Part shown: positions 26,303 to 44,596 of the stretch, one piece after another
How the letters are laid out: the number at the start of each line of letters is the position of its first letter
Position numbering within the stretch: the stretch's first letter is position 1
Assembly: GCF_005145025.1 (NCBI RefSeq)
Contig: NZ_CP039698.1
Span: 1-44,815, forward strand
Direction: 5' to 3'
DNA length: 44,815 bases
Source: Novosphingobium sp. EMRT-2
Lineage (GTDB): Bacteria > Pseudomonadota > Alphaproteobacteria > Sphingomonadales > Sphingomonadaceae
The notes under the pieces: generated by a model
The model's database searches: none
Told to the model about the DNA's origin: nothing
The model's input: only the letters and a program-made list of their open reading frames with translations
Position numbers and translations under genes: made by a program

Positions 26303-26862
26303 ATCGCGCGATGATTTACGGCTATGCGCGCGTCTCGACCAACGGCCAGGACCTGGCCCAGCAGCTCGCCCAGCTTGAGGCGGCCGGCTGCACGAAGATC
26401 TACCGCGAGAAGATCAGCGGCGCGTCGGCCGAGCGCCCCCAGCTCAAGCGCGCGATCGGCGCGCTCGATCCAGGCGACGTGCTGATGGTGACGGCGACCG
26501 ATCGCCTCGCCCGCAACACGCGCGACCTGCTCAACATCCTGCACGCGGTCAAGGAGGCCGGCGCCGGCTTCCGCTCGATCGCCGAGCCGATGCTGGACAC
26601 GACCTCGCAGCTCGCCGAGGTTGTGATTGCCGTTCTAGGCGTCGCGGCCAGCTACGAGCGCCAGCGGATCGCCGAGCGCACCAGCGCGGGCCGCGCCCAG
26701 GCCAAGGCGCGCGGGGTCAAGTTCGGCCGCAAGAGCGCCCTCACCCCGCACCAGCAGGCCGAGGCGCGGCGCAAGCTCGACGCCGGCGACACGCAGCGCT
26801 CCGTCGCGGCGCTGTTCAACGTCAGCCAGGCGACGATTTCGCGGCTACAGGAGCGGCCATGA
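26296..26862 (+). CDS. Serine resolvase/invertase
   Basis: A 188-residue small serine recombinase. The catalytic domain opens IYGYARVSTNGQDL with Ser14 as nucleophile and has the arginine motif TDRLARNTRDL near 72. It continues to the E-helix ERQRIAERTSAGRAQAK, and the C-terminal helix-turn-helix is QRSVAALFNVSQATISRL. It probably resolves plasmid dimers at the res-like site just upstream. A second ATG at 26311 gives the more usual N-terminus MIYGYARVST. Its stop overlaps the next gene's start (ATGA). Confidence 0.93.
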   Translation: MQNRAMIYGYARVSTNGQDLAQQLAQLEAAGCTKIYREKISGASAERPQLKRAIGALDPGDVLMVTATDRLARNTRDLLNILHAVKEAGAGFRSIAEPMLDTTSQLAEVVIAVLGVAASYERQRIAERTSAGRAQAKARGVKFGRKSALTPHQQAEARRKLDAGDTQRSVAALFNVSQATISRLQERP

Positions 26863-27476
26863 TGACGGAGCTGCAATGGCCTGGTGCCGCGATCGTCGTC
26901 AGCCTGGCTATCAGTCTGGCAGGATGCAGTCCGGCGAAAAAACCGGCGGCGGAAGGATCACCCCAACGAACAAGTTCGTCGGAATTGCCGCCGCCCCCTC
27001 CCCCGCCGGTGCCCGGTCCCAATTATCACGGGAACGGGAGTTCCATCGCTGTTGCTGGCGATCCGGACATTAGCGGCCTCGACGAAGCGCAGATCGATGT
27101 GATGTTCGATGAGGCGGTGGCCCGGGCGCGACCGGGGGAAAGCAAGCGCGCAATTTGTGTCGGGCTGCAGGGCCTCACCGATAGCGCTGTGAAGGATGCT
27201 CCAGAAAGAACGATCCGGCGATTGGCCGAGCTGCTGCGCTTGCCTGCTTTCCCCGCCTCCCAATGCAGGGATGGCGTCACGCCGTCCGTCACCGCGACCA
27301 GGGCCGAAGCGATCCTCTACACGGTGAAGGTCGAATCCCGCGATCGGAAAGGCGTCCTGACGTTTTGGGCTACCGCCGTGTTCGGGAATCTCGGAGCGGA
27401 GGGAATGCAATTCCGCCTTATCCGCCAAGCTGGACGCTGGGTGCCTGAGCCTACCGGATTGTCAGTGTTGTCATGA
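26859..27476 (+). CDS. Hypothetical lipoprotein 1
   Basis: A 205-residue protein with a lipoprotein signal (VVSLAISLAGC, lipidated Cys23), a proline-rich linker PPPPPPPVP near 44-50, and a soluble domain from about residue 65 (DISGLDEAQIDVMFDEAVAR onward) ending RWVPEPTGLSVLS. No family is recognised. It starts within the resolvase stop codon (ATGA) and overlaps the next lipoprotein gene by four bases, so resolvase and lipoprotein genes may be co-transcribed. The first copy at 35-649 is frame-broken. Confidence 0.75.
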   Translation: MMTELQWPGAAIVVSLAISLAGCSPAKKPAAEGSPQRTSSSELPPPPPPPVPGPNYHGNGSSIAVAGDPDISGLDEAQIDVMFDEAVARARPGESKRAICVGLQGLTDSAVKDAPERTIRRLAELLRLPAFPASQCRDGVTPSVTATRAEAILYTVKVESRDRKGVLTFWATAVFGNLGAEGMQFRLIRQAGRWVPEPTGLSVLS

Positions 27477-27922
27477 GGCGATCAATGCGCCAGCATGACC
27501 CCATCCTGTCGTTTTTGCTTTTAACCGCGATGGGGCTTGAGGGCTGCGCTACGAGTGTCAGTCCCTTGCCGCCCCGGCTCTTGACCGCTTCGCCAGTAAG
27601 CACGGTTGGAGGCGAAGCCCGGTTCGAAGGAGGGCTTCACATTTGGGAAAACTGCATCGTCGTCGGATCGGGTCGAACACTTGCAATCTTCGACCCTTCA
27701 GTGCGCCTGACAGGAACAGGCGACGCCATTCTCGATAGCAGGACCGGCGTACGGATTGCCGTCGGTGAGCATTTCAGCGCGTCAGCGGCATTTCTCCGCG
27801 ACGAGGGCCGTGGATGGAGTCTTTCAGACATTAAGAAAGCGACCGGTGCGGATGTGTCGAAAGGCTGTGAAACCGACGCAATCGTCAGGTTGAGGAATAT
27901 TCAAAGAGGCCCCTCACGATGA
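27473..27922 (+). CDS. Hypothetical lipoprotein 2
   Basis: A 149-residue protein with a lipoprotein signal (LLLTAMGLEGC, Cys25) and a beta-rich domain: HIWENCIVVGSGRTLAIFDP, GTGDAILDSRTGVRIAVGEH and GWSLSDIKKATG. No family is recognised. Both ends overlap neighbours by ATGA: the previous lipoprotein, and the exported-protein gene that IS5 interrupts. The three genes once formed a coupled unit. Confidence 0.72.
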   Translation: MRRSMRQHDPILSFLLLTAMGLEGCATSVSPLPPRLLTASPVSTVGGEARFEGGLHIWENCIVVGSGRTLAIFDPSVRLTGTGDAILDSRTGVRIAVGEHFSASAAFLRDEGRGWSLSDIKKATGADVSKGCETDAIVRLRNIQRGPSR

Positions 27923-27981
27923 GGAGACGTTTAGGGCCTGTGGGGATTCACAAGCCGGAGCGGATGTGATTCACACTGCGG

Positions 27982-28733
27982 ATGGATCGCGATGTACTGA
28001 CGGACGCCCAATGGGCGAAGATGGAACCCCATTGTCTTGGCAAGCCGACGGACCCTGGGCGAAGCGGGAGAAACAACCGGTTGTTCATGGAGGCGGTGCT
28101 GTGGATTGTGCGGACGGGCAGCCCGTGGCGGGATCTGCCGGAACGGTTCGGCAACTGGAGTACGGCGTTCCGGCGCTTCCGCGATTGGCGTGAAGCCGAT
28201 GTTTTCAGGCATATATTCGATGCGTTGTCGGACGAGCCGGACCTGGAATACGCCATGGTCGATGCCACGATCGTCAAGGTCCACCGTCACGGACAGGGCG
28301 CAAAAGGGGGACTCAGAGCCAGGCCATTGGTCGTTCCAAAGGTGGCATGACAACCAAGATCCTGGCCCTCACCGATGCCTTGGGCAATCTGGTGCGCTTT
28401 CGGCTTATGCCGGGCCAGCGCCACGACAGCGTCGAGGTGCCGCCGTTGATCGAGAACATCGCCTTTGACGGGCTGATCGCCGACAAGGCGTTCGACAGCA
28501 ACGCACTGGTCGCCAAGTTGAACGAGCGTGGTGCCAGGATCGTAGTCTCGCAGCACCCCGGCCGTTCGCAGAAACTCAAGATCGACGCCAGCATCTACAC
28601 GTGGCGGCACCTCATCGAGAACTTCTTCTGCAAGCTGAAGGAGTTCAAGCGCATCGCAATGCGGGCCTGCAAAACCGACCGCAGCTTCCAGGCAATGATC
28701 TACCTGGCCGCCGCCGTCATCAACTCGCGGTGA
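27982..28733 (+). CDS. IS5-family DDE transposase made by -1 frameshift
   Basis: Two overlapping frames (27982-28350 and 28347-28733) together encode about 250 residues. The first holds the helix-turn-helix-like N-terminus (LTDAQWAKMEPH) and the first catalytic Asp in AMVDATIVK. The second has the Asp in LIADKAFDSN and the Glu in HLIENFFCKLKEFKR. A -1 slip in the run AAAAGGGGG (28302-28310) restores family sequence GTQSQAIGRSKGGMTTK. Both copies of the plasmid keep this run, so the shift is probably programmed, as in IS427 relatives. Confidence 0.88.
28302..28310 (+). promoter_or_regulatory. Slippery run for transposase frameshift
   Basis: AAAAGGGGG where zero frame reads GCA AAA GGG GGA. 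A -1 shift joins the two transposase frames in family-consistent order. Confidence 0.6.
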
Positions 28734-29079
28734 ATCCCCACAGCCCCTAATCAACATCACGCGGCCCGCATCACTGATCGCCGCATCGGTGGCAGCTTCG
28801 CTCGCGATCAGCGCGGCCTCACTGCTGGCCGCGCAGTCGTCAAGGGATCAGGCGCGCGTCGTCACCACGCCAGATGGCCGCACCGTGTATGTCGTGCCGG
28901 CGCAGCCTGGGGCTACCGGCACGAAGAGGCCCCTAGTGCGTACCGTGATTACGCCAGATGGTCGCACCGTTTACGTCGTGGAAGACCAGCTGTTGAGTTG
29001 CACTGAGAAGTGACCCGGGATTTTCATTGAGAAGTGACCCGGGTGGGCGTGGATGATGTGCTGCCTGCGACGAGCAGGG

Positions 29080-29859
29080 TCAAGCGGGTGATTTGTCCTT
29101 TCTGGATTTTGGGGCGGCGGAACTGGCTCTGAAGCGGAAGCTGTCATTGCCGGTTTCAAGGATATGGCAATGATGCGTGAGGCGATCCAGCAGGGCGGTG
29201 GTCATTTTGGCATCGCCAAAGATACTGGACCACTCGCTGAAGCTCAGGTTGGTGGTGATAACAACGCTGGTCCGCTCATAGAGTTTGCTGAGCAGATGGA
29301 ACAGCATGGCCCCGCCTGAAGGGCTGAAGGGTAGATATCCCAGCTCATCAAGGATGACGAGGTCGAGGCGCAACAGACGCTCGGCCAACTGGCCCGCTCT
29401 GTTTGCGGCCTTTTCCTGCTCCAACGCATTGACCAGATCGACGGTGGAGAAGAAGCGGATCTTTTTGCGGTGATGCTCAACCGCCTGGACGCCCAAAGCC
29501 GTCGCGATGTGGCTTTTGCCGGTGCCTGGTCCGCCGATCAGTACGACGTTGTCGGCGCTATCCATAAAGTCACCACGGTGAAGTTGACGCACGAGCGCCT
29601 CGTTGACCTCACTGACGGCAAAGTCGAAGCCTGCCAGATCCTTGTAGGCCGGGAACCGGGCTGCCTTGATCTGGTAAGCAATGGACCTGACCTCCCGCTC
29701 GGACATCTCCGCCTTGAGAAGCTGTGAGAGGATCGGAACGGCAGCATCAAAGGCTGGCGCGCCCTGCTCGATCAGATCACCAGCGGCTTGCGCCATGCCA
29801 TACATTTTGAGGCCACGTAGCATGACAACCACAGCGGCGCTGGCCGGATCATGACGCAT
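29080..29859 (-). CDS. istB: IstB-like helper ATPase of IS21
   Basis: A 259-residue AAA+ ATPase that assists IstA in target selection and transposition. Walker A is GGPGTGKSH near 109-117 and Walker B is [12 protein letters not shown] near 167-178. A sensor region [12 protein letters not shown] and the C-terminal [20 protein letters not shown] are family hallmarks. The start overlaps the end of istA by 11 bases, allowing coupled translation. Confidence 0.95.
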
Positions 29860-31378
29860 GGCGTAACGCCCTCAGCGTGTCGTAGCGTTCGACATCGGCA
29901 ACAGGCTCCTGGGCGAGGCGCAGGGCCTGCGGGGCATCGATTGGGGATGCCGGTGGAGCCTTGCCATCGATCAGGCGGTGCAGAACATTGAGGATGTGGG
30001 TTTTGGTCGGCACCCCAGCTTCGAGGGCCAGTTCGACGGCGCTGAGCACAGCCTGTTCGTTATGCTGTAGAACAAGGGCGAGGATTTCGACCATCTCCCT
30101 GTCACCACCGAGCCGCTTGAGCAGATGCCCCTGCAGTTGCCGGAAGGCTTCGGGCATTTCGAGGAATGGCGCCCCATTGCGCAAAGCGCCAGGCTTGCGC
30201 TGAACAACTGCCAGATAGTGCCGCCAGTCATAGATCGTCTGCCCCGGCTTCTGGTGAGAACGGTCGATAATCCGGTTGTGCTCGCACAAGATTTGCCCCT
30301 CGGCCGCGATGACCAACCGATCAGGATAGACCCGCAGGCTCACTGGCCGGTTCGCAAAGGATGCAGGAACGCTATAGCGATTGCGCTCGAACGCGATCAG
30401 GCAGGTCGGCGACACGCGCTTGGTATGTTCGACAAAGCCATCGAAGGCCCGCCCCATCGGCATCAGGCTGATAATCTCAACGGCGTGCACATCGGCAACT
30501 GTGCCGGGGAGGACGCCATGCTGGATTTCTCCCCATTGTGCGATGCACCGCTCTTCCAACCAGGCATTGAGGGCATCAAGATCTGGGAAGTTGGGCATTG
30601 GCTGCCATAACCGTCGACGCGCATCCTGAACGTTTTTCTCGACCTGACCTTTCTCCCAGCCTGAGGCCGGATTGCAAAAATCCGTTTCGAACAGGTAGTG
30701 GCTGGCCATGGCAGCGAACCGCGCATTGACCTGTCGGACTTTGCCCTGGCCGATCCGGTCTACAGCCGTCTTCATATTGTCGAATATTCCACGCTGAGGC
30801 ACGCCGCCCAGCACCCGGAAGGCCTGCGTCAGTGCGTCGAACAACATCTCGTGCGTTTGCAGCAGATAGGCTCGCGTGATGAACGCCCGACTGTGGGAGA
30901 GCTTGGTATGGGCCACCTGCAGCTTGGTAGGCCGGCCATTCAGAAGGGCGTAATCTTCACTCCAATCGAACTGAAAGGCCTCACCGGGCTGGAAGATCAG
31001 CGGTACGAATGTGCCGCGCCCACTGGTTTGCTTTTCATATTGGCGTTCGGTCTTCCACGAGCGGGCGAAGGCGGCAACACGGCTGTATGATCCCTCGTAG
31101 CCCAGCTTAACCAGATCTGCATGTAGCTGCTTGGCTGTTCGCTTCTGTTTGCGCGACTTGCCAGATTCCACCCGCAGCCACGTCGTCAGTTTTTCTGCAA
31201 ACTGATCAAGCTTGCTCGGCCGTTTGGGAACCTTGAACGTCGGCTCCACCGCGTCATCGCGCAGATATTTGCGGATCGTGTTGCGCGATAATCCAGTCCG
31301 CCGCCGGATCTCGCGAATGGGGATGCCTTGCCGAAAATGCCAGCGGCGGATCACACTGAGTAGGTCCATGTCGATCAC
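29849..31378 (-). CDS. istA: IstA-like transposase of IS21
   Basis: A 509-residue DDE transposase. N-terminal helix-turn-helix: [20 protein letters not shown]. The catalytic core has Asp in [13 protein letters not shown], Asp in [11 protein letters not shown], and Glu in [19 protein letters not shown] beta-barrel-like C-terminal part follows ([20 protein letters not shown]). Reads intact here; the first copy is broken at several indels. Confidence 0.95.
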
Positions 31379-31473
31379 TCCGATGCCTCCTGACTGTCAG
31401 CCAGGGGCGAGGAAAACATGGGTCAATTCTCAGTGAAAACTTATAACCCTCCCGGGTCACTTCTCAGTGCAAC

Positions 31474-31899
31474 TCAACACGCAGGCATGGCAGCGAGGCG
31501 CGTCAGCGCCGCCTCGCAGCGCCGTAGCAGCGTGGCGAAGCTCTCCGCCCCTTCCCCGTCGCAATAGTCCGGGTCCGCCTCGCGCCAATAGCGTTCGAGA
31601 TGCGGCATCCGCTCCGCGCTGCGCGTGCCGTTCCAGCGCGCCGGTTGCAGATACGTAAATTCCTCTATCGGCCAGACTTCGACCGGCACGCCGGGAAAGC
31701 GCGCGATCGTCGGCGCGGCCGTCTGCCGGGTGCGGGTATAGGGCGACGTGACGATGAGCGCGGGCGCTTGCGTCCAACTCGCCGCGACCGCCCTTGCCTG
31801 TTCGTGGCCGCGCTCCGTCAGCGCGATCGTCGCGAGATCATTGCAGGGCACGCCCGCGTTGCCGGTGGATTCGCCGTGGCGGATGAAGATTACGCGCAT
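31474..31899 (-). CDS. Histidine phosphatase (phosphoglycerate-mutase-like), 3'-truncated
   Basis: A 141-residue histidine-phosphatase-superfamily protein with the phospho-histidine motif FIRHGESTGN (His8) and downstream ALTERGHEQARAVA and VTSPYTRTRQTA with its catalytic arginine. Homologues are usually longer (about 180-220 residues). This one ends PAC at a TGA inside the IS21 terminal repeat and lacks the second-histidine region, so activity is doubtful. It starts three bases after the toxin stop and was probably part of the toxin-antitoxin operon's transcript. Confidence 0.85.
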   Translation of the reverse strand: MRVIFIRHGESTGNAGVPCNDLATIALTERGHEQARAVAASWTQAPALIVTSPYTRTRQTAAPTIARFPGVPVEVWPIEEFTYLQPARWNGTRSAERMPHLERYWREADPDYCDGEGAESFATLLRRCEAALTRLAAMPAC

Positions 31900-31901
31900 G
31901 G

Positions 31902-32222
31902 CTATTCAAACAGCTCCGCGTGAGTGCCGGCGCGCACGAAGTTCACCAGATTCCCCTCAATCGTATAGATCAGGAGGAAATCGCCGCCGATATGGCACTC
32001 GCGATGATCGCTCCAATCGCCTTTCAGCGGATGATCCAGCCATTCCGGGCCTAACGGCGCGTCGTTGGCGATGAGCATCATCATCGCTTCCTTGAGCTGT
32101 TTCATGTTGTAGCGCCCGCTGCGCGACAGCCGCTCCCAATCCTTGACGAACCTTTTTTCGTAGGACGCCTCTCTTGGGAACGAAGCCCGCTTACTGCTGG
32201 CGGGCTTCTTGGTCGAGGGCAT
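31902..32222 (-). CDS. YafQ-family toxin (RelE/ParE superfamily)
   Basis: A 106-residue protein whose core SYEKRFVKDWERLSRSGRYN, PLGPEWLDHPLKGDW, HRECHIGGDFLLIYTIE and VNFVRAGTHAELF matches YafQ-type ribosome-dependent endoribonucleases. The family's histidines HxLKG, HREC and GTHAELF are present. The start at 32222 lies 32 bases inside the antitoxin gene, with AGGAAA eight bases upstream; an upstream ATG at 32240 is possible. It should cleave mRNA when the antitoxin is lost, so plasmid-free cells are poisoned. Confidence 0.87.
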   Translation of the reverse strand: MPSTKKPASSKRASFPREASYEKRFVKDWERLSRSGRYNMKQLKEAMMMLIANDAPLGPEWLDHPLKGDWSDHRECHIGGDFLLIYTIEGNLVNFVRAGTHAELFE

Positions 32223-32472
32223 CGAACATTTCCTGGGCATCGGTGAAACGGGCGCGGCGGGCCTTCATCGTCGCACGGGACGCCTCGATCGCGGCGCGCG
32301 TCTCGGCGTTCGGCACCTTCAGCTCGAACGGCAACGCATGATCCTTGGCAACCCGCGTGAGGGTCATGCGGACCACATCCGAGACGGTCAGCCCCAGCTC
32401 GGCCAGCACGGCGGCAGCTTCATCCTTCACTGCTTCGTCGATGCGCGCGCGCACGAAAGCGGTAGCGGCCAT
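32191..32472 (-). CDS. DinJ/RelB-family antitoxin
   Basis: A 93-residue protein. The N-terminal ribbon-helix-helix is TAFVRARIDEAVKDEAAAVL then GLTVSDVVRMTLTRVAKD. The C-terminal toxin-wrapping segment is ASRATMKARRARFTDAQEMF. The start at 32472 has AAGGAGG upstream; the 23 residues before it in frame are not family-like. It probably binds the palindrome inside its own promoter. Confidence 0.88.
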   Translation of the reverse strand: MAATAFVRARIDEAVKDEAAAVLAELGLTVSDVVRMTLTRVAKDHALPFELKVPNAETRAAIEASRATMKARRARFTDAQEMFDALDQEARQQ

Positions 32473-32496
32473 TGGAACCTCCTTGGTCAAGCCGAT

Positions 32497-32525
32497 AATG
32501 TAGCTCAGTTGAGCAACAATTTCAA
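32497..32525 (-). promoter_or_regulatory. Toxin-antitoxin promoter with operator in spacer
   Basis: Minus-strand -35 TTGAAA (32520-32525), 17-base spacer, -10 TACATT (32497-32502). The palindrome GCTCA-gt-TGAGC (32503-32514) fills most of the spacer, so a ribbon-helix-helix antitoxin bound there would block RNA polymerase. Confidence 0.65.
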
Positions 32526-32540
32526 TCCAGGCAGAGGACA

Positions 32541-32889
32541 TGCGCCTGCCGCTGGCGCGGCACCGTGGCCCTACTCGCTAAGCTCCCCAAGCCCGCAAGC
32601 GGTCTTGGCCCAAGGTGACGACTCACATGGCGGAGGGCGAGATCGCAAGCGGGATCTCGCTGCATGGTGCCGGCGTGCACCGGCGTCGCTCCTGTTTGAA
32701 GGGGGAAAGGCGGTTCCGGCCGCCTCTCCCCCGCAACGGGATTAGACGGGGCCGTGCCTCGCTGCGCTGCGGCCGCTCCACCCCCATCGAATCCCGCTGC
32801 CCCCCTCTCTCGCCGGCGTTCTTGGGCGTCCGTGTTCCGGCCGATGGCATGGCCATCGCCGGACAGGCGATTTGAAGGGAGTAAGGACG
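32541..32889. other. Gene-free spacer with several hairpins
   Basis: No supported gene. Hairpins: GCGAGATC/GATCTCGC (32637-32644 with 32653-32660) and GGGGGAAAGGCGG with CCGCCTCTCCCCC (32701-32732). A GCCGG/CCGGC pair lies near 32670-32685. They could end transcription or form a structured leader for the SprT-like gene. Confidence 0.45.
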
Positions 32890-33530
32890 ATGACCCACCA
32901 AACCCGCGAAAGCTGGCTCAATGCCGTGGCGTTGGGCATGACTCCGCTGTTCGAGGCGCTGGACGCCCCCCTGCCCGACCGCGTGCGCGTGGCGATCGGC
33001 TTCACCAGCAGAGGCGCGAAGGGCAAGGCGATCGGCGAGTGCTGGGATAATCGGTTGAGCGCGGACGGGCATTTTGAAATCTTCATCCGCCCGGACCTGG
33101 CGCACGCGCCCGACGCGATGCCGGCGCAGATCGCGGCCATCCTCGCGCATGAGCTGGTCCATGCCGCTGTCGGCATCCCGGCAGGGCATGGGAAGGCGTT
33201 AAACGGGTCGCCCTTGGGCTGGGCCTAGTCGGGCCGATGCGCGCCACCACCCCCGGCGAGGCGTTCCTTGCGGCCATCACGCCGATCCTCGCCGATGTTG
33301 GCCCCCTCCCCCATGCCCGTCTCGACACGGACGGAGAGTCGACCGCACCCAAGAAGCAGAAAACCCGGATGCTCAAATGCGAGTGCGCGGCGTGCGGCTA
33401 TACCGTGAGGACCGCGCGCAAATGGCTTGAGCAGGCCGGAGCGCCGCTTTGCCCGATCGAGGATCACGGCCAGATGCAGCATGAACCGCTGGACGATGAC
33501 AGCGAGGATGAGGGCGGCGAGGATAGCTAG
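32890..33530 (+). pseudogene. SprT-like zinc metalloprotease gene with frameshift
   Basis: The first frame (32890-33228) has the metalloprotease motif AHELVHAAVGIPAGHGK, then stops. The second (33237-33530) continues the family with MRATTPGEAFLAAITPILAD and a C-terminal zinc ribbon (LKCECAACGYTVRTARKWLE, then APLCPI). One T missing in gcgttaaacgg (33197-33207 region) explains the break: gcgtttaaacgg would read through as KAFKRVALGLGLVGPM. Both plasmid copies share it, so it may be a true mutation. Reinitiation at 33237, eight bases after the stop, is conceivable. The start has GGAGTAAGGACG upstream. Confidence 0.75.
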
Positions 33531-33623
33531 ACCGCCCTCCCCTCCCCGCAATTCGGGGTTTCATTGACGCTGCGCGCAAGTTCGGGGTTTCGTTGACGCA
33601 GCCGAACCGAGCCAATATGGCCA

Positions 33624-33659
33624 CATGCAAACATGCGGTCATGTAAGGATATTCACATG
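33624..33659 (+). promoter_or_regulatory. CATG array upstream of parA (four units)
   Basis: CATG at 33624, 33632, 33640 and 33656: exact 8-base steps with one empty position (33648). The last CATG contains the parA start codon, so a protein bound here would block translation or transcription initiation of parA. Confidence 0.75.
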
Positions 33660-34310
33660 CCAACAATCGCGATCATTAGCCAGAAGGGCGGCGCGGGCAA
33701 GACCACCCTCGCCCTGCATCTGGCCGCAGCCGCCGAGGATTCCGGGCATACCGCCCTTGTGATCGACCTCGACCCACAGGCGACGGCGAGCCAGTGGGCG
33801 GCATGGCGACAGGATGCGCCCCCGGTCGTGATTGACAGCGCACCCCCTCGCCTTGCCGCCAAGATCGAGCAGGCGACGGGCCAGGGCGCGGCGTTCATCG
33901 TGATCGACACCCCGCCCCATGCCGACAGCGCGGCGAGCGCCGCCGTCGAAGCGGCCGACCTGGTGCTGATCCCTTGCCGCCCCAGCGCGTTCGACCTGGC
34001 CGCGATCAAGACGACCGCCAGCCTTGTGAAGATGCGCGGCAAGCCCGCGTTCGTGATCTTCACGGCGGGAAGCCCGACCGCGCCGCGCATGTATGACGAG
34101 GCCGCGCAGCTCGTGCAGGATTATGGGCTGGACGCCTGCCCGCACCATATCGCCGATCGTGCCGCCTTTCGCCATGCGGCGGCCGAAGGCAAGACGGCGA
34201 TGGAGATCGAGCCGAACGGCAAGGCGGCCGACGAGGTGCGCCAGCTTTACAAGTGGACATGCGGGCATGTAAACATGCAAGCATCGAAGAAGCGGAGGGC
34301 CAGCGCATGA
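33657..34310 (+). CDS. parA: ParA-type partition ATPase
   Basis: A 217-residue small ParA/MinD-type ATPase, the size of type Ib partition proteins without an N-terminal DNA-binding domain. The deviant Walker A is SQKGGAGKTTLALHLA at 8-23, Walker A' has VIDLDPQATASQW, and Walker B has FIVIDTPPHAD. It should form a nucleoid-bound gradient that moves the plasmid. The start at 33657 has AAGGA upstream; the upstream ATG at 33633 lies in the CATG array. Its stop overlaps the next gene (ATGA). Confidence 0.93.
   Translation: MPTIAIISQKGGAGKTTLALHLAAAAEDSGHTALVIDLDPQATASQWAAWRQDAPPVVIDSAPPRLAAKIEQATGQGAAFIVIDTPPHADSAASAAVEAADLVLIPCRPSAFDLAAIKTTASLVKMRGKPAFVIFTAGSPTAPRMYDEAAQLVQDYGLDACPHHIADRAAFRHAAAEGKTAMEIEPNGKAADEVRQLYKWTCGHVNMQASKKRRASA
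34258..34277 (+). promoter_or_regulatory. CATG array in parA 3' end (three units)
   Basis: CATG at 34258, 34266 and 34274, exact 8-base steps, inside the last codons of parA and 30 bases before the downstream gene. CATC continues the phase at 34282. Confidence 0.65.
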
Positions 34311-34624
34311 GCAGCCGGAAAGGATCATTGCTTGCATTGCGGGATCGCGATGCAGCACCAGCGCCGGCGACGGCCGAGCCGGAGGGGAGGGCGGCCGCAC
34401 CGATCGCCCGCAGCTCTGGCACGGGCACCGGCAGCGGATCGAGCAGCAGCCCGGTTGCGCCGAGCCGTCAGGGCAAGAAGGCCATGACGGGCTATTTCAG
34501 CCCGGAGATGTCCTTCGCCATGCACATGACCGCTCGCAAGCACGGCATGAGCTTGCAGGACGCAATGGCCGAGGCGTTCAACGACTGGCTGCGAAAGATG
34601 GGGGAAAGCCCTGTAGGCAAGTAA
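34307..34624 (+). CDS. Putative ribbon-helix-helix centromere-binding protein (ParB/ParG analogue)
   Basis: A 105-residue protein. Residues about 1-55 are disordered, rich in Ala, Ser, Gly and Pro. The C-terminal part GKKAMTGYFSPEMSFAMHMT followed by ARKHGMSLQDAMAEAFNDWL fits strand-helix-helix, as in ribbon-helix-helix proteins such as ParG. Position right after parA, with ATGA overlap and GGAGGG upstream, makes it the likely centromere-binding partner; the flexible N-terminus would stimulate ParA, as in ParG. Dimers of this fold can bind tandem 8-base boxes (as MetJ does), matching the CATG arrays. Confidence 0.75.
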   Translation: MSSRKGSLLALRDRDAAPAPATAEPEGRAAAPIARSSGTGTGSGSSSSPVAPSRQGKKAMTGYFSPEMSFAMHMTARKHGMSLQDAMAEAFNDWLRKMGESPVGK

Positions 34625-34625
34625 C

Positions 34626-34661
34626 CATGTTCACATGCAAACATGCAGGCATGTGAACATG
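34626..34661 (+). promoter_or_regulatory. CATG array downstream of partition operon (five units), candidate parS
   Basis: CATG at 34626, 34634, 34642, 34650 and 34658: five copies at exact 8-base steps immediately after the ParB-like stop. It is the longest of the three clusters and the best candidate centromere. Confidence 0.75.
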
Positions 34662-34683
34662 GCCGCTTGCCATAGGGCGGGAA

Positions 34684-35793
34684 TCAGCGCAGCGGCTTGC
34701 GTTCGTGCCGTTTCTTGCAGAAGCCGAGGAAGGCGGCGCGGGGGCTTTTCAGTTCGGGCTTACCCATGTCGTGCCACCACGACACCCATTCGTCATAAAG
34801 CGCGTAAACGTCATAACCTGGCGCGGCCGTCTTGGCGTCGTGCATGGTTTCAGGGTCGATATAGGGCGCATCGTCGGCGACGGCGACCGGATCGGGCTTG
34901 GACTTGAGGCCCGAGCGGTTGCGGAACAGGATTACGTCATCGTCCATCGTCACGGCATAATCGGGGAAATGGCCGTGGTCCGCGTCATGCTCGCAGACCT
35001 TCTTGACCAAGGCCCGGAATACCCGGAGCGGGCTGTTCGAGCCGCATTTCTTTTGCAGCAGCTCTAGGCCGATCTTCCATTCGTCCTTCACGCCGCAATG
35101 CTTGCGCGCCAGCTCATACATGCGCCGCTCGAACGGCTTGCGGAGCCGGAAATAGTCCCGGTGGAGCGTCAGGACGTTCTTGCTGATGACCGAGCGATAG
35201 ACCCAATCCGACAGGGTGATTTCGAGATCGAGCATCCGCCCGTCGAACGTCTTGCGGGTAATCTTGGCTTCTTCGATCAGGCCGAAAATCCGCGTTTCCT
35301 CGATACCGCCCGTTTGAATGTTGGTCCGCACCGTGGTCCCGCGCAAGCGGGTGAGGGCGTCGGCCATCAGCCGATAGCCTTCGCCGCTGGTTTGCCGGTT
35401 GGTGGCGACGAGCATGTCATAGGCTTGCAGGCGCACCGTGCGGCTAGGTTGCTCGCCCTGGTTCATCTTCGCAACGAGCTGCGAAATGCAGTAGATCAAT
35501 ATGTCCTTGTCGTGGATCGTCGCCAGACCCTTGCCCGAGGGGATAATCTCGATGACGTTGCCGTTATGCTCATAGCGTCGCGTCCGGTTGTCGGGCTTGG
35601 TCGAGAGCGAAAACACCGGGTGCTCCATCGAGGCCATGTCATCCTTGGGGATGGCGTCCAGCACGTCGCAGATGAACAAGTCCTGGTTGGGGTGGCGCAC
35701 CGGCAGCAGCGGCGTGCGATCGTCGCCGTCCACGGCCGAGGCCGGCGCGACGATCGGGGCGTCAAACAGGGAAGGGGCGGGGCCTATCGTCAT
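34684..35793 (-). CDS. repA: RepA-type replication initiator
   Basis: A 369-residue plasmid initiator of the RepA type found on alphaproteobacterial plasmids. Recognisable parts are HPNQDLFICDVLDAIPKDDM near the N-terminus, the winged-helix region with YCISQLVAKMNQGEQPSRTV and SGEGYRLMADALTRLRGTTV, and SDWVYRSVISKNVLTLHRDY followed by RLRKPFERRMYELARKHCG. It binds iterons and opens the origin. The start ATG (35793) lies inside the first iteron, so RepA should repress its own gene. It is convergent with the partition operon. Confidence 0.9.
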   Translation of the reverse strand: MTIGPAPSLFDAPIVAPASAVDGDDRTPLLPVRHPNQDLFICDVLDAIPKDDMASMEHPVFSLSTKPDNRTRRYEHNGNVIEIIPSGKGLATIHDKDILIYCISQLVAKMNQGEQPSRTVRLQAYDMLVATNRQTSGEGYRLMADALTRLRGTTVRTNIQTGGIEETRIFGLIEEAKITRKTFDGRMLDLEITLSDWVYRSVISKNVLTLHRDYFRLRKPFERRMYELARKHCGVKDEWKIGLELLQKKCGSNSPLRVFRALVKKVCEHDADHGHFPDYAVTMDDDVILFRNRSGLKSKPDPVAVADDAPYIDPETMHDAKTAAPGYDVYALYDEWVSWWHDMGKPELKSPRAAFLGFCKKRHERKPLR

Positions 35794-35983
35794 TTCACTA
35801 ACGCTTGGCCTACTATCGTCATTTCACTAACGCAAGCGGGATTATCGTCATTTCAGATTCACCCCCGCGCTATCGTCATTTCGATTACGCTTGAGAGAGG
35901 GGCAAGGCAGGCCAGGCGCTATCGTCATAGTGGATTCGCCTTTTCGTCACTCTGGATTCGCTTTTTCGTCAGAGCGGATTCAC
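35785..35983 (+). repeat. Replication iterons, seven units
   Basis: Units start at 35785, 35814, 35843, 35871, 35920, 35942 and 35964. The first two are identical TATCGTCATTTCACTAACGC. The next two keep TATCGTCATTTC. The last three keep only TCGTCA and GGATTC. Spacing is 29, 29, 28, 49, 22 and 22, so the array has a long-step and a short-step half. Confidence 0.88.
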
Positions 35984-36088
35984 CCCATGGCAAATTTGGC
36001 CCAAAAAACCGCGTATTTCCAATTGCTTCCGAGAAGGCGCGATTTCCGTAACACATCACTAAACCCATATTTTAACACTAGGCGAGGC
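35984..36088. other. AT-rich origin segment
   Basis: About 100 bases between iterons and DnaA box with A/T runs (caaatttggcccaaaaaacc, catattttaacac), far less GC-rich than the rest of the plasmid. Probable unwinding region. Confidence 0.6.
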
Positions 36089-36097
36089 TGTGGATAA
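36089..36097 (-). promoter_or_regulatory. DnaA box
   Basis: TGTGGATAA, exact reverse complement of TTATCCACA, at the border of the AT-rich region. Confidence 0.75.
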
Positions 36098-36588
36098 CTT
36101 CAGGCCGTTGCGCTTTCCGCCATGTCAAAAGGAAGAAAAGCACCGCCTCTTGGGGGCTTCGCCCCCGCCGGCTCGCGGCCTTCGGCCGCCCCGGATCGCT
36201 GAAGCGATCCTCCCACCCGGCATCCCCATAATGAGCCGGCTTCGCCGGCACGCCTTTGTTTGTTTGGGGATGATGGCAACCGTCGCGCCTCTATCGCCAA
36301 CACACAACCTAGCCCCACCGTTGCAAATGGCTTTCCAGAAAAGCCAAGCGGATAGGGGGGCGCCGATCGGAGAGGGCAGGGAAGGCGGGAACGTCCCCAC
36401 AGGCGCGATTTCCGGCCCGTCTAGCCCCTTTCCGGGCGTTCGACAGGGTTTCGGGCGCCGGAACCGCCCAAGGCGCTCTACGGGCTTCCCAGGCGGCCGA
36501 TTTCCCAAGCTCGATCCTTGCCATTCACCTGTCGCGCAGATGGTCCAGACCGGCTATATTGGATCGGCCCAACGGCACGATCGCGACC
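36098..36588. other. Gene-free origin flank
   Basis: No supported gene: an open plus frame of 172 codons has no ribosome-binding site or domain-like sequence. It holds the hairpin series at 36152-36249 and a small hairpin GGCTTT/AAAGCC at 36329-36345. Confidence 0.5.
36152..36249. repeat. Series of four short GC-rich hairpins
   Basis: GGGGGC-ttc-GCCCCC (36152-36166), GCGGCC-ttc-GGCCGC (36175-36189), GGATCGC-tgaa-GCGATCC (36193-36210) and GCCGGC-ttc-GCCGGC (36235-36249). Different stems with a similar small loop suggest a structural element like REP sequences or a transcription stop near the origin. Confidence 0.65.
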
Positions 36589-36620
36589 GGACCCGCCGTG
36601 GCTGCTAACGCGGCGGGTCC
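36589..36620 (-). terminator. Terminator-like inverted repeat after traG
   Basis: Perfect 10-base stem GGACCCGCCG/CGGCGGGTCC (36589-36598 with 36611-36620) just downstream of the traG stop. No T run follows on the minus strand, so intrinsic termination is uncertain. Confidence 0.5.
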
Positions 36621-36622
36621 AA

Positions 36623-38281
36623 TCACGCCTTATCGAACTTCCCGGCGAACTCGCGATCGGCATAATAGGCGAGCTTGCCGGCGACGATCGGCCGTTGCCC
36701 GGCGAGGAACAGGAACTGCAAATCGTCCCGAAGGGTGCGGACCTCATCGGGCGTGAGCAGCGGGCGGCCGACATGCTGCGCGCCGAACGAGATTCCGGTT
36801 TCGTCACTGTCGATCGCGCGGCTCATCGTCTCGAACACGACGGTCTCCTGCCCGAGCAGATCGGAGACGAGTTTCGCGCTGTCGTGATCGTTGACGCCGA
36901 ACACCTGTAGGACGCCGGCGTTTGACAGGAAGGTGCCGGCGCGGCGCTCGTAGAGCGCGCGGAGCTGGTGAACGTCTTGCAGGATCGGCCAGAGCTGGAC
37001 GCCGTAGCCGGCCATGAGGCCCATTGCGCGCTCGACGGGGGCCAGATGGCCGAGGGCGGCGAACTCATCGAGCAGGAACAGCACCGGGCGGGCAGGGGAG
37101 GCCGGCGCGCGCGCAAGATCGGTCAGACCTTGCGCGAGCATAAGGCGCAGCCAGCGGGAATAGGTGGCGAGCCGATCGGGCGGCAGTACCAGATAGACGG
37201 TAGTGGGCTGCGCTTTCACATCGGCGAAGGTAAAATCCGAGTGCCCCAACACCGCCGTCATGCGCGGGCTGTCGAGGAAATGGGTATGGCGCTGCGCGGC
37301 CGAGAGGACGCCGGCCGCCTCGCGGTCGGATTTGCCGAGGTGGCGGTTTGCAGCGCGGGCGGCGAGGCCGCCTTGCGCCTGCATCGTTTCGAGCTGGGCG
37401 GTGAAAGCGGCGGGCGCGAGGGTGAGCCGGTCGCGCAGCGTGGCGAGATTGCGGGTCGGGGCCGGCTCGCTTGTGACGATCGACAGTATTAGGCCCGAGA
37501 TCAGCGCCTTGGCTTCCTCGTTCCAATGCGCTTCGCCGGCTTCGCCGGGTGCGTCATAGACCAGCGCGTCGGCCAGCGTCATGCAGTCGTCGGCGAGATC
37601 GAGGCTTGCCCCATCGATGCGATCGAGCGGGTTGAACGCGGCGCTGGCGATGCCCGTCACCCCGAACGGATCGAGGACATGGACCGGGCCGAACTTCGCG
37701 TGGTGGCGCGCGGTGATGCGGGCATTTTCGCCCTTGGGGTCGATGCAGACGACCGGGCCGGGATAGTCGAGCAGGTTGGGGATGATGGTTCCCACCCCTT
37801 TGCCGGTGCGCGTCGGTGCCATCGTCAGCAGATGGGCCGGGCCGTCATAGCGCAGGAGCTTGCCCGATTTCGGGTCGCGGCCGATCAGCAGGCCGTTGCC
37901 TTGGGCGAGAGGCCGCGTCTCGCGGTCGGTGGCAAAGCGGGCGGAACCGTGGGTGGCGTCGCTGGCAGGACCGCCATATTGCAGGATGAGGGGCTGGAAG
38001 AGGGCGCGCAGCGTGACAAGGATGATGACGAGGAACGTCAGCATCATGCCTATCTGGTAAAGATGAGAATCCCGGGCCAAGCCGAGCAGCGAGTGCAGGA
38101 GGAATTGCATTCCCCCGGCGAGGACCAGGCCGACGATCAGGAACAGGATCGCGACGCGCAGCAGATGGCGGACGAGCGCGATGGGGCTGAGGGTTAGCGC
38201 CGTGATCGCCCATATCGGATTATGACGGGCGATGCGGGCGAGGTTGCGGATCGCGCGACCGAGCTGGTGCAGCCACTCCAT
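36623..38281 (-). CDS. traG: TraG/VirD4-type coupling protein (T4CP)
   Basis: A 552-residue inner-membrane ATPase that delivers relaxase-bound DNA to a type IV secretion channel. Two N-terminal membrane segments (about 41-66 and 76-97) precede the motor domain, with Walker A APTRTGKG (155-162) and Walker B VLFLLDEF (400-407). The family segments CIDPKGENARIT and HVLDPFGV lie between. It is the last gene of the tra operon, its start one base from the preceding stop. Because the plasmid has no secretion-channel genes, it must use another element's channel. This is the intact copy; the first copy is a diverged, frameshifted version. Confidence 0.94.
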   Translation of the reverse strand: MEWLHQLGRAIRNLARIARHNPIWAITALTLSPIALVRHLLRVAILFLIVGLVLAGGMQFLLHSLLGLARDSHLYQIGMMLTFLVIILVTLRALFQPLILQYGGPASDATHGSARFATDRETRPLAQGNGLLIGRDPKSGKLLRYDGPAHLLTMAPTRTGKGVGTIIPNLLDYPGPVVCIDPKGENARITARHHAKFGPVHVLDPFGVTGIASAAFNPLDRIDGASLDLADDCMTLADALVYDAPGEAGEAHWNEEAKALISGLILSIVTSEPAPTRNLATLRDRLTLAPAAFTAQLETMQAQGGLAARAANRHLGKSDREAAGVLSAAQRHTHFLDSPRMTAVLGHSDFTFADVKAQPTTVYLVLPPDRLATYSRWLRLMLAQGLTDLARAPASPARPVLFLLDEFAALGHLAPVERAMGLMAGYGVQLWPILQDVHQLRALYERRAGTFLSNAGVLQVFGVNDHDSAKLVSDLLGQETVVFETMSRAIDSDETGISFGAQHVGRPLLTPDEVRTLRDDLQFLFLAGQRPIVAGKLAYYADREFAGKFDKA

Positions 38282-38282
38282 G

Positions 38283-38588
38283 TCAGGCGGCTCTGCATGG
38301 GAGAGGGGGAGCCTTGCGAGGGTGGAGCGTCAGGCCGCGCACACCCGGCGCGGCGGCGATGCGGCGTTCCAGTGCCGCGACCTCATCCACCTTGTCGCTG
38401 GACCAGTCGCGCGCGACGTGGACGCCACCGGCGTCGGTTTCGAGATCGAGGCAGGCCAGATCGGGGCGAAGATCAAGCAGGCGCGTCAGGTCAGTGATCA
38501 GCTCAGGCGAGAGCGGGTCGGGCAGATTGCCCGTCATCACAAGCTGCCAGGATCGCTTTTCCCCATCGCCAGTCCTGCGCCTGCTCAT
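38283..38588 (-). CDS. Small tra-operon protein (second copy)
   Basis: Same 101-residue protein as 11424-11729. GGAGGA precedes the ATG. Confidence 0.68.
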   Translation of the reverse strand: MSRRRTGDGEKRSWQLVMTGNLPDPLSPELITDLTRLLDLRPDLACLDLETDAGGVHVARDWSSDKVDEVAALERRIAAAPGVRGLTLHPRKAPPLPCRAA

Positions 38589-38602
38589 GGTGCTGTCCTC
38601 CC

Positions 38603-39328
38603 TCAATCCGCGTCCAGCGCGAAATCCACCCGCACCGTCACGATGCCGGCGTTCGTTCCAGTCATCACCGGGGGCGCTTGTGCTATCTGCGGTGCCACGA
38701 CGGGGGGCGGGGCGACCATGCGGGCGTCCATCTCCGCCATTGGCGGCATGTAGCCGCCTTGGCCGCCGTCGTGGATCGCAAGCACGCGTGTGATGCGAAG
38801 CCCGGCGGCCTTCGCATAAGCGTCTGCCTTGGCGCGCGCGGCCTTGTAGGCAAGATCATAGGCCCCCAGGTTCGCCTTTTCGGGGTCGGCGACCGACAGG
38901 TTGGGGCCAGACACGATATTAGCGCCGGCGGCCGTCACGGCCGCGATGGCCTGGCCGACGCGATCGGTGTTGCGGACGCGCACGGCAAGGGTGTTGGCGG
39001 CTTCGTATTTCCCCCGGTTGTCGCCCCAGGTGATCCGGTTCACCGACAGGTTGCGCGTCTGGATATCGCGCGCCGGAATGTCGAGCTTGGCAAGCGCGGC
39101 GGTAATCTGCTGCATCGTTTCGGCATTGCGCGCGCTCGCGGCCTCAGCCGTCGCGGCGATGCTCGACAGGCCGGCGGTGAACAGCGCCTGGTCGGGCGCA
39201 GCCTCGGCCCGTCCCGATCCGGTGACGGTGAGAAAGGTTTCATTCTCTTCCAGACCGCGCGGATCGGGCGCGCCGGGGGTGCAGCCGGCAAGCGCGATCA
39301 GCCCCGATACCACCAACAATTGCTTCAT
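38603..39328 (-). CDS. SIMPL-domain lipoprotein (second copy)
   Basis: Same as 11744-12469; lipobox LAGC and DUF541 domain intact. Confidence 0.85.
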   Translation of the reverse strand: MKQLLVVSGLIALAGCTPGAPDPRGLEENETFLTVTGSGRAEAAPDQALFTAGLSSIAATAEAASARNAETMQQITAALAKLDIPARDIQTRNLSVNRITWGDNRGKYEAANTLAVRVRNTDRVGQAIAAVTAAGANIVSGPNLSVADPEKANLGAYDLAYKAARAKADAYAKAAGLRITRVLAIHDGGQGGYMPPMAEMDARMVAPPPVVAPQIAQAPPVMTGTNAGIVTVRVDFALDAD

Positions 39329-39636
39329 CCTGATCCTCCCGTCTGATTTTCTTCCGCTTCCGCATCGAACGCGCGTTTGCCGCGCCGCTTCCAAAGCGCC
39401 AGCACATCGCCGGCGTCGTCATCACGCGCCCGCCCAGCGAGTTCGAGCAGCGCGCCGTAGAGCGTCGCGCGATCGTCCTCGACCAGCTCGACCAGGCCGG
39501 CTTTCTGGACGAGCCCGCCCAGCTCGATCAGATGACGGGTGCGTTCGCGGCGTTGCACGACCCAGCTCCGGTTGTCGGTGCGCGCGCGGGCCGATTCAGC
39601 GCGCCGCCTCGCCGTCAGATTGCGCCGCTCCGCCAT
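39325..39636 (-). CDS. traD: TraD-type protein (second copy)
   Basis: Same as 12466-12777; the stop overlaps the SIMPL gene start by four bases. Confidence 0.8.
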   Translation of the reverse strand: MAERRNLTARRRAESARARTDNRSWVVQRRERTRHLIELGGLVQKAGLVELVEDDRATLYGALLELAGRARDDDAGDVLALWKRRGKRAFDAEAEENQTGGSG

Positions 39637-39901
39637 CGCCCTCGCCTTGAGCAGCGCCGCCAGCTTTGCGCCCGCGCCGTTGAAAGAAGGCAGCGCCCTT
39701 CGCGCGCCACGCCTCCTTCGCACTGGTGTCTTTCGACCCGACCGCATCGAGCAGCGCGCCGGCAAGCATTTCGGCATCGAGCGCATCGGCTCCGGTGGCG
39801 ACGACAAGCTGGCCGAACTGTTCCACCTTCCGCGCCTTCAATGCACGGGCCTTGTCGTTCAGCGCCTTCAACTCGGCATCGTAATCGCGGACCTTACGCA
39901 T
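39596..39901 (-). CDS. traC: TraC-type protein (second copy)
   Basis: Same as 12737-13042; overlaps traD by 41 bases. Confidence 0.8.
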   Translation of the reverse strand: MRKVRDYDAELKALNDKARALKARKVEQFGQLVVATGADALDAEMLAGALLDAVGSKDTSAKEAWRAKGAAFFQRRGRKAGGAAQGEGDGGAAQSDGEAAR

Positions 39902-40325
39902 CCCAGCTTTCCTCCGTTTCTCGTTCTGGCAGACCGGCCCCACAGTCGGCCCAGGGTAGGCGGCCCTCGACGCCATAATGATAGGCCGGTGTGACGCGCC
40001 CGGGATGATCGAGCGTGCCGACATGGAAGGCGACTTCCTCTGTCGCTACGCCGCTCGCCTCGTCGTAATGGATCGTGAGCGGCGAGCCGCAGTCGCCGCA
40101 GAACGACCGGACCGCGATCGGCGATGAGCGGTAGGATATCTGCGTGTCACCGATCCAGCCCACATCGTCCCAGCGCACCCAGGCGAGAATGGCGAAGGCG
40201 CTGCCGGTCGATCGCCGGCACATTGAGCAGTGGCAATAATGAACGCGGGGCGGAGCGTGCAGCACATAGCGCATGGCCCCGCAGAGGCATCCGCCTTCAA
40301 GCTCTTGATGCTCGCTGCCATCCAT
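39894..40325 (-). CDS. GFA/CENP-V-family zinc protein (second copy)
   Basis: Same as 13035-13466; all family cysteine motifs are present. Confidence 0.85.
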   Translation of the reverse strand: MDGSEHQELEGGCLCGAMRYVLHAPPRVHYCHCSMCRRSTGSAFAILAWVRWDDVGWIGDTQISYRSSPIAVRSFCGDCGSPLTIHYDEASGVATEEVAFHVGTLDHPGRVTPAYHYGVEGRLPWADCGAGLPERETEESWDA

Positions 40326-40437
40326 TAGCCAGCCCTCGCGCCCATGAACCGGAGCGGCAGAGTAGCAGGATCGCGGCAGGAAGGTAGCGCCCGAGCCAAG
40401 AAATGCGGCGAAGTCAATCACGCGAACGGCAGAGAGT

Positions 40438-40478
40438 GTGAGTGCGCGCTTATACGTCGTTGCCGACGTGCGCTTGAG
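40438..40478 (+). other. Candidate oriT (second copy)
   Basis: Same as 13579-13619; the stem ACGTCG/CGACGT lies at 40454-40459 and 40464-40469, about 30 bases before traA. Confidence 0.55.
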
Positions 40479-40498
40479 AAGGCAGTATAGCGGCCGTC

Positions 40499-43427: not shown

Positions 43428-43436
43428 GGAGAGGGA

Positions 43437-44197: not shown

Positions 44198-44331
44198 CCA
44201 GGGCAGGTGAAAAGGCTCTATGGCGATTGGAACGCCGGTGCGATGGACCGCCCTCGCGTCCAGTCTGGCCGTGGCTGTTGATCGTGGCCCTGGCGATTGT
44301 GGTGGCGGTCGCGGCATGGAGGATGAGATGA
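44194..44331 (+). pseudogene. 45-residue membrane peptide, second copy, frame shifted internally
   Basis: Corresponds to 17344-17481. An extra G near 44213 and a lost G near 44230 scramble residues 8-12; the membrane segment remains. Confidence 0.55.
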
Positions 44332-44596
44332 ACGCGCTTCCCTATCGCTCGACCGGTGTTCGATGAAACGACGCTTCCGCCGCGCTGCGAAGCGAGCATC
44401 GCACCAAGGCCGGCGTGTGGGGCGTGATCCGGGTGATCGAAGGGAGCTTGAGGCTGACCTATCTCGACCCGCTTCAGAAATGATTGTCACGCCCGATCGG
44501 CCAGCGCTGATCCTGCCCGAACAACCGCATTTCGTCGAACCGCTCGGAGTCATGAGGATGCAGGTCGATTTCTACGATCAGCGGCCAAGCCTCTAG
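44328..44596 (+). pseudogene. DUF1971 protein, second copy, frame broken
   Basis: Corresponds to 17478-17750; four single-base losses (near 44353, 44378-44380 and 44470). Confidence 0.65.

What the first reader, a model, noticed from the sequence alone, without database searches (positions are those of the whole stretch)
33624..34661. CATG boxes at a strict 8-base pitch in three clusters around the partition genes
CATG occurs at 33624/32/40/56, 34258/66/74 and 34626/34/42/50/58, always in 8-base steps: four before parA (the last covering its start codon), three at the parA end, five after the ParB-like gene. Ribbon-helix-helix dimers can bind tandem 8-base boxes (MetJ does), and the downstream protein has such a domain. 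This suggests a centromere plus two operators read by one protein, with an unusual three-site layout I cannot match to a described parS.
Basis: partly seen in the sequence, partly recalled or inferred. Interest (0 to 1): 0.8.

Follow-up and report, generated by a model that had tools for sequence, protein, structure and literature searches.

The report
Eight-base ruler sites for plasmid partition
The repeated CATG boxes look like landing strips for the plasmid's own partition protein; related plasmids keep the 8-base spacing while the letters can change, so this is a new variant of a known plasmid-inheritance system rather than a new kind of thing.

Summary
In the 4.77 Mb host genome, three CATG boxes at 8-base pitch occur only at this par locus, which the window holds twice. 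The locus is a type Ib partition operon: a 217-aa ParA, then a 105-aa ribbon-helix-helix ParB (PF20605). In the closest relatives (class I) CATG arrays pass a shuffle test in 43 of 43 distinct regions upstream of parA, 43 of 43 at the parA-parB junction and 45 of 46 downstream of parB. More distant relatives, cyanobacterial ones included, mostly keep the pitch upstream and at the junction, while box and spacer letters change; a few of the most distant show no clear arrays. Upstream boxes are mostly in register with the parA start codon, itself usually a CATG box. A TP228-type IncX1 locus (ParF/ParG) has the same pitch with ACTC boxes, and seventeen 8-bp repeats are reported for a Psychrobacter plasmid (PMC3346939). 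Binding is untested; the downstream array is the variable part.

The parts
33593..33621 (+). possible promoter TTGACG-17 nt-TATGGC ending just before the first box
   Evidence: read by eye; not listed by the consensus scan, so weak
33624..33643 (.). upstream array, three contiguous CATG boxes (33624, 33632, 33640)
   Evidence: arrays pass in 43 of 43 distinct class I regions
33648..33651 (+). skipped box position (GATA), next to a ribosome-binding-site-like AAGGA
   Evidence: the same position is purine-rich in several relatives, by eye
33656..33659 (+). in-register CATG box holding the parA start codon
   Evidence: register test
33657..34310 (+). parA, 217-aa ParA-type partition ATPase
   Evidence: NF041546 214 bits, cut-off 180; PDB hits include ParF 4dzz
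34258..34277 (.). junction array inside the parA 3' end, boxes 34258/66/74 (degenerate in-phase edges CAAG at 34250 and CATC at 34282)
   Evidence: codon constraint
34307..34624 (+). parB, 105-aa ribbon-helix-helix protein; start overlaps the parA stop (ATGA)
   Evidence: PF20605 residues 54-103, E 4.3e-16; alignment
34626..34661 (.). downstream array, five contiguous CATG boxes
   Evidence: arrays pass in 45 of 46 distinct class I regions
34684..35793 (-). repA, replication initiator (PF10134), converging on the array
   Evidence: 297.9 bits
6771..7807 (.). second copy of the same par locus in the redundant part of the contig

Best explanation
This is the partition locus of a circular plasmid of about 26.8 kb. 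ParB, a ribbon-helix-helix dimer, binds each palindromic 8-bp unit centred on CATG, one dimer per unit, and neighbouring dimers touch because the pitch is exactly 8 bp. The array over the parA leader and start codon, and the array inside the parA end before parB, act as autorepression operators and as part of the partition site. The five-box array after parB adds a centromere-type cluster. ParB on these arrays recruits and activates ParA, which moves the plasmid on the nucleoid. Shown here: gene identities, the arrays, their pitch, register and conservation. Inferred: binding, one dimer per box, autorepression, and which array is the centromere.
For: Gene identities. Own-genome specificity. 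In class I (ParB beta-strand AMTGYF or close; 64 loci, fewer distinct regions) CATG arrays beat 200 shuffles at P<=0.05 in 43/43 upstream, 43/43 junction and 45/46 downstream regions. Tetramer repeats peak at lags 8, 16 and 24 in 15 unlike class I upstream regions (87, 53, 64, against a mean of 6.3 and maximum of 21 at other lags), but not in control DNA 426-560 bp upstream (lag 8: 26; other lags mean 21.7, maximum 46). Upstream CATG boxes are in register with the parA start codon: 131 of 132 in class I, 30 of 38 in II, 5 of 9 in III, 6 of 6 in IV, 39 of 42 in V. In 18 of 58 upstream regions, picked to have unlike flanks, the array block has mean majority frequency 0.90 against 0.42 in the flank (the choice lowers the flank value). 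Inside parA the residue before Cys is Thr in 34 and Ala in 10 of 44 ORFs, yet the codon ends in CA in 44 of 44, keeping the box, whereas ACA is 104 of 544 Thr codons elsewhere in the same ORFs. Same pitch in a TP228-type ParF/ParG locus.
Against: No binding data. The downstream array is not family-wide: CATG-scored it passes in 1 of 19 class II, 1 of 5 class III and 0 of 4 class IV regions; with class-fitted profiles, which had no shuffle control, 4 of 19 class II and 4 of 5 class III regions score above 8. Some far PF20605 relatives lack clear arrays: L037 neither region; L038 upstream P 0.02, junction 0.18; L042 0.001 and 0.51; L039 0.25 and 0.14; L033 and L036 have none at the junction. Controls are not all clean: class I control DNA 400-510 bp downstream has 34 and 31 repeats at lags 16 and 24 against a maximum of 23 at other lags (lag 8: 19), perhaps because split arrays reach it in L001 and L028; class III control DNA downstream has 13 at lag 8, equal to its largest shuffle. 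A cruder identity measure did not single out lag 8 in the window's upstream stretch (18, against 20 at lag 15). The register with the parB start holds in class I (113 of 119 boxes) but not in II, III or V. The AlphaFold monomer has low mean confidence (64.6) and no modelled beta-strand, and its best PDB match is not significant (E 0.82).
Confidence: 0.86

Rival explanations
1. The arrays are only operators for autoregulation of parA-parB; the real centromere lies elsewhere on the plasmid.
For: The two widespread arrays sit over the parA leader/start codon and just before parB, as operators would; the downstream array is missing in most class II loci (1 of 19; 4 of 19).
Against: No other exact three-box site exists in the whole genome; in class I the downstream array has 3-6 contiguous units in 38 of 42 regions scored, where no promoter was listed (window only); in pSM19035 and TP228 repeats of this kind serve partition and regulation (PMC9499535 and PMC5016525, passages seen).
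Confidence: 0.12
2. The boxes are iterons for the neighbouring RepA initiator.
For: The five-box array ends about 22 bases from the end of repA in the window.
Against: Arrays lie at both ends of parA, and upstream and junction arrays are present where the gene listed after parB is not a replication gene (L013, L014, L152) or where it lies on the same strand instead of converging (L019).
Confidence: 0.03
3. The pattern is chance plus duplication of the contig.
For: The window holds the locus twice, which inflates the window count.
Against: Conserved array blocks between unlike flanks, codon constraint, start-codon register, and lag-8 counts in class I, II and V control DNA that stay within their shuffles.
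Confidence: 0.01

Closest known systems
ParF-ParG-parH of plasmid TP228 and its IncX1 relatives
   Same: Small ParA (27% identical to the IncX1 ParF), ribbon-helix-helix partner encoded next to it, tetramer boxes at 8-base pitch running to the parA start codon (by eye) and a weaker cluster between the two genes (P 0.042). One of two fetched ParG loci was measured (L148; L149 was only printed).
   Different: Box is ACTC/GAGT, asymmetric; here it is palindromic CATG. ParG is Pfam PF09274, this protein PF20605; profile comparison with one ParG gives probability 14%, E 0.002. No 8-pitch array was noticed just after parG in L148 (by eye).
par locus of Psychrobacter plasmid pP62BP1 (PMC3346939, passages seen)
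   Same: Seventeen adjacent 8-bp repeats between the -10 box and the parA ribosome-binding site, ParG-domain partner.
   Different: Identical AATACTCA repeats in one block; ParG family protein; described there as a putative site.
omega / parS of pSM19035 (PMC9499535, passages seen)
   Same: Ribbon-helix-helix ParB on contiguous short repeats that overlap promoters of its own genes; four or more contiguous repeats needed for full ATPase activation.
   Different: 7-bp non-palindromic repeats at promoters of separate genes.
MetJ and met boxes (recalled)
   Same: Ribbon-helix-helix dimers on tandem palindromic 8-bp boxes.
   Different: Biosynthesis repressor with another box sequence; no ParA partner.

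Membership tests
Type Ib plasmid partition (small ParA + ribbon-helix-helix ParB) | Small ParA without an N-terminal DNA-binding domain | tested here: met
   217 aa, Walker motif near residue 10, NF041546 214 bits over cut-off 180, ParF among PDB hits
Type Ib plasmid partition (small ParA + ribbon-helix-helix ParB) | Short downstream gene for a ribbon-helix-helix DNA-binding protein in the same operon | tested here: met
   PF20605 59.3 bits; start overlaps the parA stop codon
Type Ib plasmid partition (small ParA + ribbon-helix-helix ParB) | Short repeats next to the operon | tested here: met
Type Ib plasmid partition (small ParA + ribbon-helix-helix ParB) | Protein binds the repeats; plasmid stabilised; ParA ATPase activated | not testable with these tools
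   needs bench work
ParF-ParG-parH (TP228) | ParG family protein (PF09274) | tested here: not met
   only PF20605 found; the IncX1 ParG control scores 163.4 bits with PF09274
ParF-ParG-parH (TP228) | Tetramer boxes with 4-base spacers (8-base pitch) | tested here: met
   TP228-type control
ParF-ParG-parH (TP228) | ACTC box with AT-rich spacers (ACTC recalled, seen in L148) | tested here: not met
   box is CATG; spacers such as CAGG and CGGT occur
omega/parS of pSM19035 | 7-bp repeat unit | tested here: not met
   pitch is 8
MetJ met-box operators | Palindromic 8-bp units in tandem | tested here: met
   fitted unit CATGTnnA in four classes, i.e. ACATGT across units
MetJ met-box operators | MetJ protein and met box sequence | tested here: not met
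   Pfam match is PF20605 only

The most novel reading that the evidence does not exclude
The PF20605 ParBs and their sites form a family across at least two phyla in which the 8-base pitch is fixed while the letters read change with the ParB beta-strand: CATG box with loose spacers in class I, T[AC]GA spacers with a looser box in class II, G-T-A positions in class III, and other boxes in far relatives (GGCA/TGCC-like in L032 and L035, by eye). The upstream array is built in register with the parA start codon, and the junction array is written through the parA coding sequence. Plasmids could thus gain new partition specificity, and so compatibility, by changing letters on a fixed ruler.
Probability: 0.5. 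Interest if true: 0.65.

Novelty: new variant of a known kind. Interest (0 to 1): 0.5.

Why it matters
It gives a natural series of matched partition proteins and sites on one geometric ruler, which makes two questions testable: how ribbon-helix-helix partition proteins switch DNA specificity, and which of several arrays in one operon acts as centromere. It also suggests that candidate partition sites can be located by pitch and start-codon register in many alphaproteobacterial and some cyanobacterial plasmids.

Tried and rejected
Chance and contig duplication: rejected. RepA iterons: rejected as unlikely, since the arrays sit at both ends of parA and occur without a replication gene after parB. 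A general register with the parB start codon: seen in class I (113 of 119 boxes) but not in II, III or V, so not claimed. A downstream array as a family rule: rejected for class II (1 of 19 CATG-scored; 4 of 19 with a fitted profile) and class IV (0 of 4); class III is unclear (1 of 5 CATG-scored, 4 of 5 with a fitted profile without shuffle control, and 14 lag-8 repeats against a shuffle maximum of 9). A standard promoter: the consensus scan lists none at the expected place, so the TTGACG/TATGGC reading stays weak. Structure: the AlphaFold monomer is of low confidence overall and the PDB search gave no hit with E below 0.001; the first ten hits are Arc, DinJ-YafQ complex, CopASO or AmrZ chains, which I know as ribbon-helix-helix proteins (family labels, and Arc for entry 1myl, recalled). 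The weak PF20605 hit on contig C2 of the host (L060) is, by eye, a lone ribbon-helix-helix-like ORF among transposase-like ORFs with no parA seen in the stretch listed.

Limits of the sample: classes were set by a sequence pattern for the beta-strand; 115 of 144 stretches held it, in 116 rows. Six rows were copies of the window locus and one was a second ORF in L022; these were left out, leaving 109. One of the 109, L032 in class 'other', is a wrong-frame pattern match, so its row means nothing; it was read properly. Of the 28 loci of other genomes, thirteen of the fourteen over the family cut-off were read further (L045 was not), six of them again on the other strand; L030, L032 and L035 have upstream and junction repeats, L033 and L036 upstream only, L037 neither, and L031, L040, L041 and L043 showed no parA. 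Four of 48 distinct parA ORFs fell outside the codon count because the tail pattern did not match. Shuffles kept base composition only, not dinucleotides. Related sequences are not independent, so counts are not probabilities. One search stopped on a script error and was rerun.

Literature: ten searches, of which I saw listings, and passages of PMC7308502, PMC9499535, PMC3346939, PMC3832669 and PMC5016525, showed me no description of CATG boxes at 8-base pitch or of PF20605 as a partition protein; PMC5002424 gave no passage for the terms tried. The library lacks most subscription papers and the two TP228 papers I asked for.

Full report
What is there. The twelve CATG boxes lie exactly as described: 33624/32/40 and 33656 before and over the start of parA, 34258/66/74 inside the 3' end of parA, and 34626/34/42/50/58 directly after parB. 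The one 16-base step (33640 to 33656) skips a position next to the ribosome-binding-site-like AAGGA. The window count of CATGN4CATG is 15 against 1.17 expected, but the window is a redundant contig: 1-17970 repeats 26825-44815 at 99.3% with 61 gap openings, which suggests a circular plasmid of about 26.8 kb read 1.7 times. Over the whole 4.77 Mb host genome the three-box pattern has nine forward sites, all in the two copies of this locus, none elsewhere, and the reversed control pattern has none.

The genes. The first is a 217-aa ParA (NF041546, 214 bits over a cut-off of 180) whose PDB relatives include ParF. [quoted passage not shown] Its start codon overlaps the parA stop. A RepA-type initiator (PF10134) converges on the downstream array.

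Conservation of the pitch. Plasmid records, 80 loci kept from a genome scan that found 208 and three from a viral-contig scan, with a few loci, gave 109 rows with a readable ParB beta-strand, one of them (L032) a wrong-frame match. I sorted them by that strand: class I AMTGYF-like (64), II QIAGFF-like (19), III AVSAYF-like (5, two of them from viral contigs), IV the cyanobacterial and Methylococcus type with one viral-contig locus (4), V AISGYF-like (14), other (3). With CATG-scored arrays and 200 shuffles per region, P<=0.05 was reached for upstream, junction and downstream regions in 43/43, 43/43, 45/46 (I); 14/19, 13/19, 1/19 (II); 5/5, 5/5, 1/5 (III); 2/2, 2/2, 0/4 (IV); 13/14, 12/14, 9/14 (V); 1/1, 1/1, 0/3 (other).

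Without assuming any word, tetramer repeats peak at lag 8 and its multiples in class I, II, III and V upstream regions. In control DNA of the same loci lag-8 counts stay within their shuffles for classes I, II and V; for class III the downstream control (13) equals its largest shuffle. Lags 16 and 24 are raised in the class I downstream control (34 and 31, other lags at most 23), which may come from split arrays lying there in L001 and L028. Five further relatives (Scytonema, Calothrix, Nostoc, Caulobacter, Marinibacterium) show lag-8/16 repeats at the junction in all five (P<=0.001) and upstream in four of five (P<=0.007; Marinibacterium 0.096).

Register with the start codon. Upstream CATG boxes fall in the same 8-base phase as the C before the parA ATG in 131 of 132 (I), 30 of 38 (II), 5 of 9 (III), 6 of 6 (IV), 39 of 42 (V) and 2 of 3 (other) cases, and the start codon is itself written CATG in 78 of 83 distinct regions. 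The five later relatives also have CATG at the parA start. The parB start is in register in class I (113 of 119 boxes) but not in II, III or V.

The array inside parA is kept at the DNA level. In 44 of 48 distinct class I parA ORFs read for codons (one of the 44 being the frameshifted redundant copy of the window), the residue before the first Cys of the tail changes between Thr (34) and Ala (10), but the codon always ends in CA, completing the CATG box; elsewhere in these ORFs ACA is 104 of 544 Thr codons. A Val in the spacer is GTA in 41 of 43 cases against 70 of 526 elsewhere. The ORFs are related, so these are not independent events.

What changes. A profile fitted to each of classes I, II, III and V gives consensus CATGTnnA, but information sits in different columns: the box in class I (1.1, 2.0, 1.9, 1.1 bits; spacer 0.3-0.5), the spacer T and G in class II (1.6, 0.9), G4-T5-A8 in class III, C1-A2-A8 in class V (no shuffle control). 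Farther out, L030 has 8-pitch repeats upstream (0 of 1000 shuffles) and at the junction (P 0.019); L032 and L035 have repeats that look GGCA/TGCC-like by eye (upstream 1 and 0 of 1000 shuffles, junction 0 of 1000 each); L033 and L036 have upstream repeats without junction ones. L037 has neither, and L038, L039 and L042 have at most one region below 0.05. So the pitch outlasts the letters, up to a limit.

How it most likely works. Each palindromic box is read by one ParB dimer, and the 8-base pitch sets neighbouring dimers side by side, as recalled for MetJ. The upstream array covers the leader and the start codon, the junction array lies before parB: both fit autorepression. The downstream array of five contiguous boxes is my best candidate for an added centromere cluster, since in pSM19035 at least four contiguous repeats are needed to activate the ParA ATPase efficiently (PMC9499535, passages seen). 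Against assigning it alone: class II mostly lacks it, and with degenerate edge units the junction array also reaches four or five contiguous units in class I. None of the binding steps is shown.

Comparison with the known. In a TP228-type IncX1 plasmid the 300 bp upstream of parF have 17 tetramer repeats at lag 8 against 0-4 at other lags except 16 (10) (0 of 1000 shuffles in the last 130 bp), with ACTC/GAGT boxes running to the start codon, and a weaker cluster between parF and parG (P 0.042). PMC7308502 (passages) describes parH as degenerate tetramer boxes with AT-rich spacers; PMC3346939 (passages) reports seventeen adjacent 8-bp repeats before a parA with a ParG-domain partner. The 8-base pitch is therefore known. 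Not seen in the papers searched, and so possibly new, are the palindromic CATG box, the PF20605 partner, the coding-sequence array kept by codon choice, the start-codon register across classes, and the series of letter changes on one ruler.

Verdict. A real, conserved, type Ib partition locus of a ParG-like working type but not a ParG family member; new variant of a known kind.

Noticed in passing
window 1-17970 and 26825-44815: The two stretches are the same sequence at 99.3% with 61 gap openings: the contig looks like a circular plasmid of about 26.8 kb read about 1.7 times, with indel-type differences as in unpolished sequence.
   Followed up: partly
window 7405-7420: In the first copy of the locus one base is missing in the middle cluster, which breaks the 8-base pitch and shortens the parA frame; probably a sequence error.
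   Followed up: partly
L001 4297-4745, L028 2175-2710, L025 2175-2815: Accessory sequence sits inside what looks like a split downstream array: CATG boxes at 8-base pitch remain on both sides of the inserted stretch (by eye).
   Followed up: partly
L022 95-140: A second 8-pitch array about 1.1 kb upstream of parA runs in register into another ATG, like a copy of the parA operator.
   Followed up: no
window 33555-33598: Two copies of GGGGTTTCRTTGACG, 29 bases apart, lie just upstream of the first array; function unknown.
   Followed up: no
window 31902-32541, minus strand: Two overlapping ORFs match, by position only, the YafQ-type toxin and RelB/DinJ antitoxin annotated upstream of parA in L001.
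   Followed up: no
Sphingomonas taxi STP1/STP2 (L016, L023) and Sphingobium amiense records (L022; NZ_AP018669.1 by identity only, not fetched): These hosts carry two plasmids with ParBs of different classes (II and III; apparently I and III), as expected if class sets compatibility; not tested.
   Followed up: no
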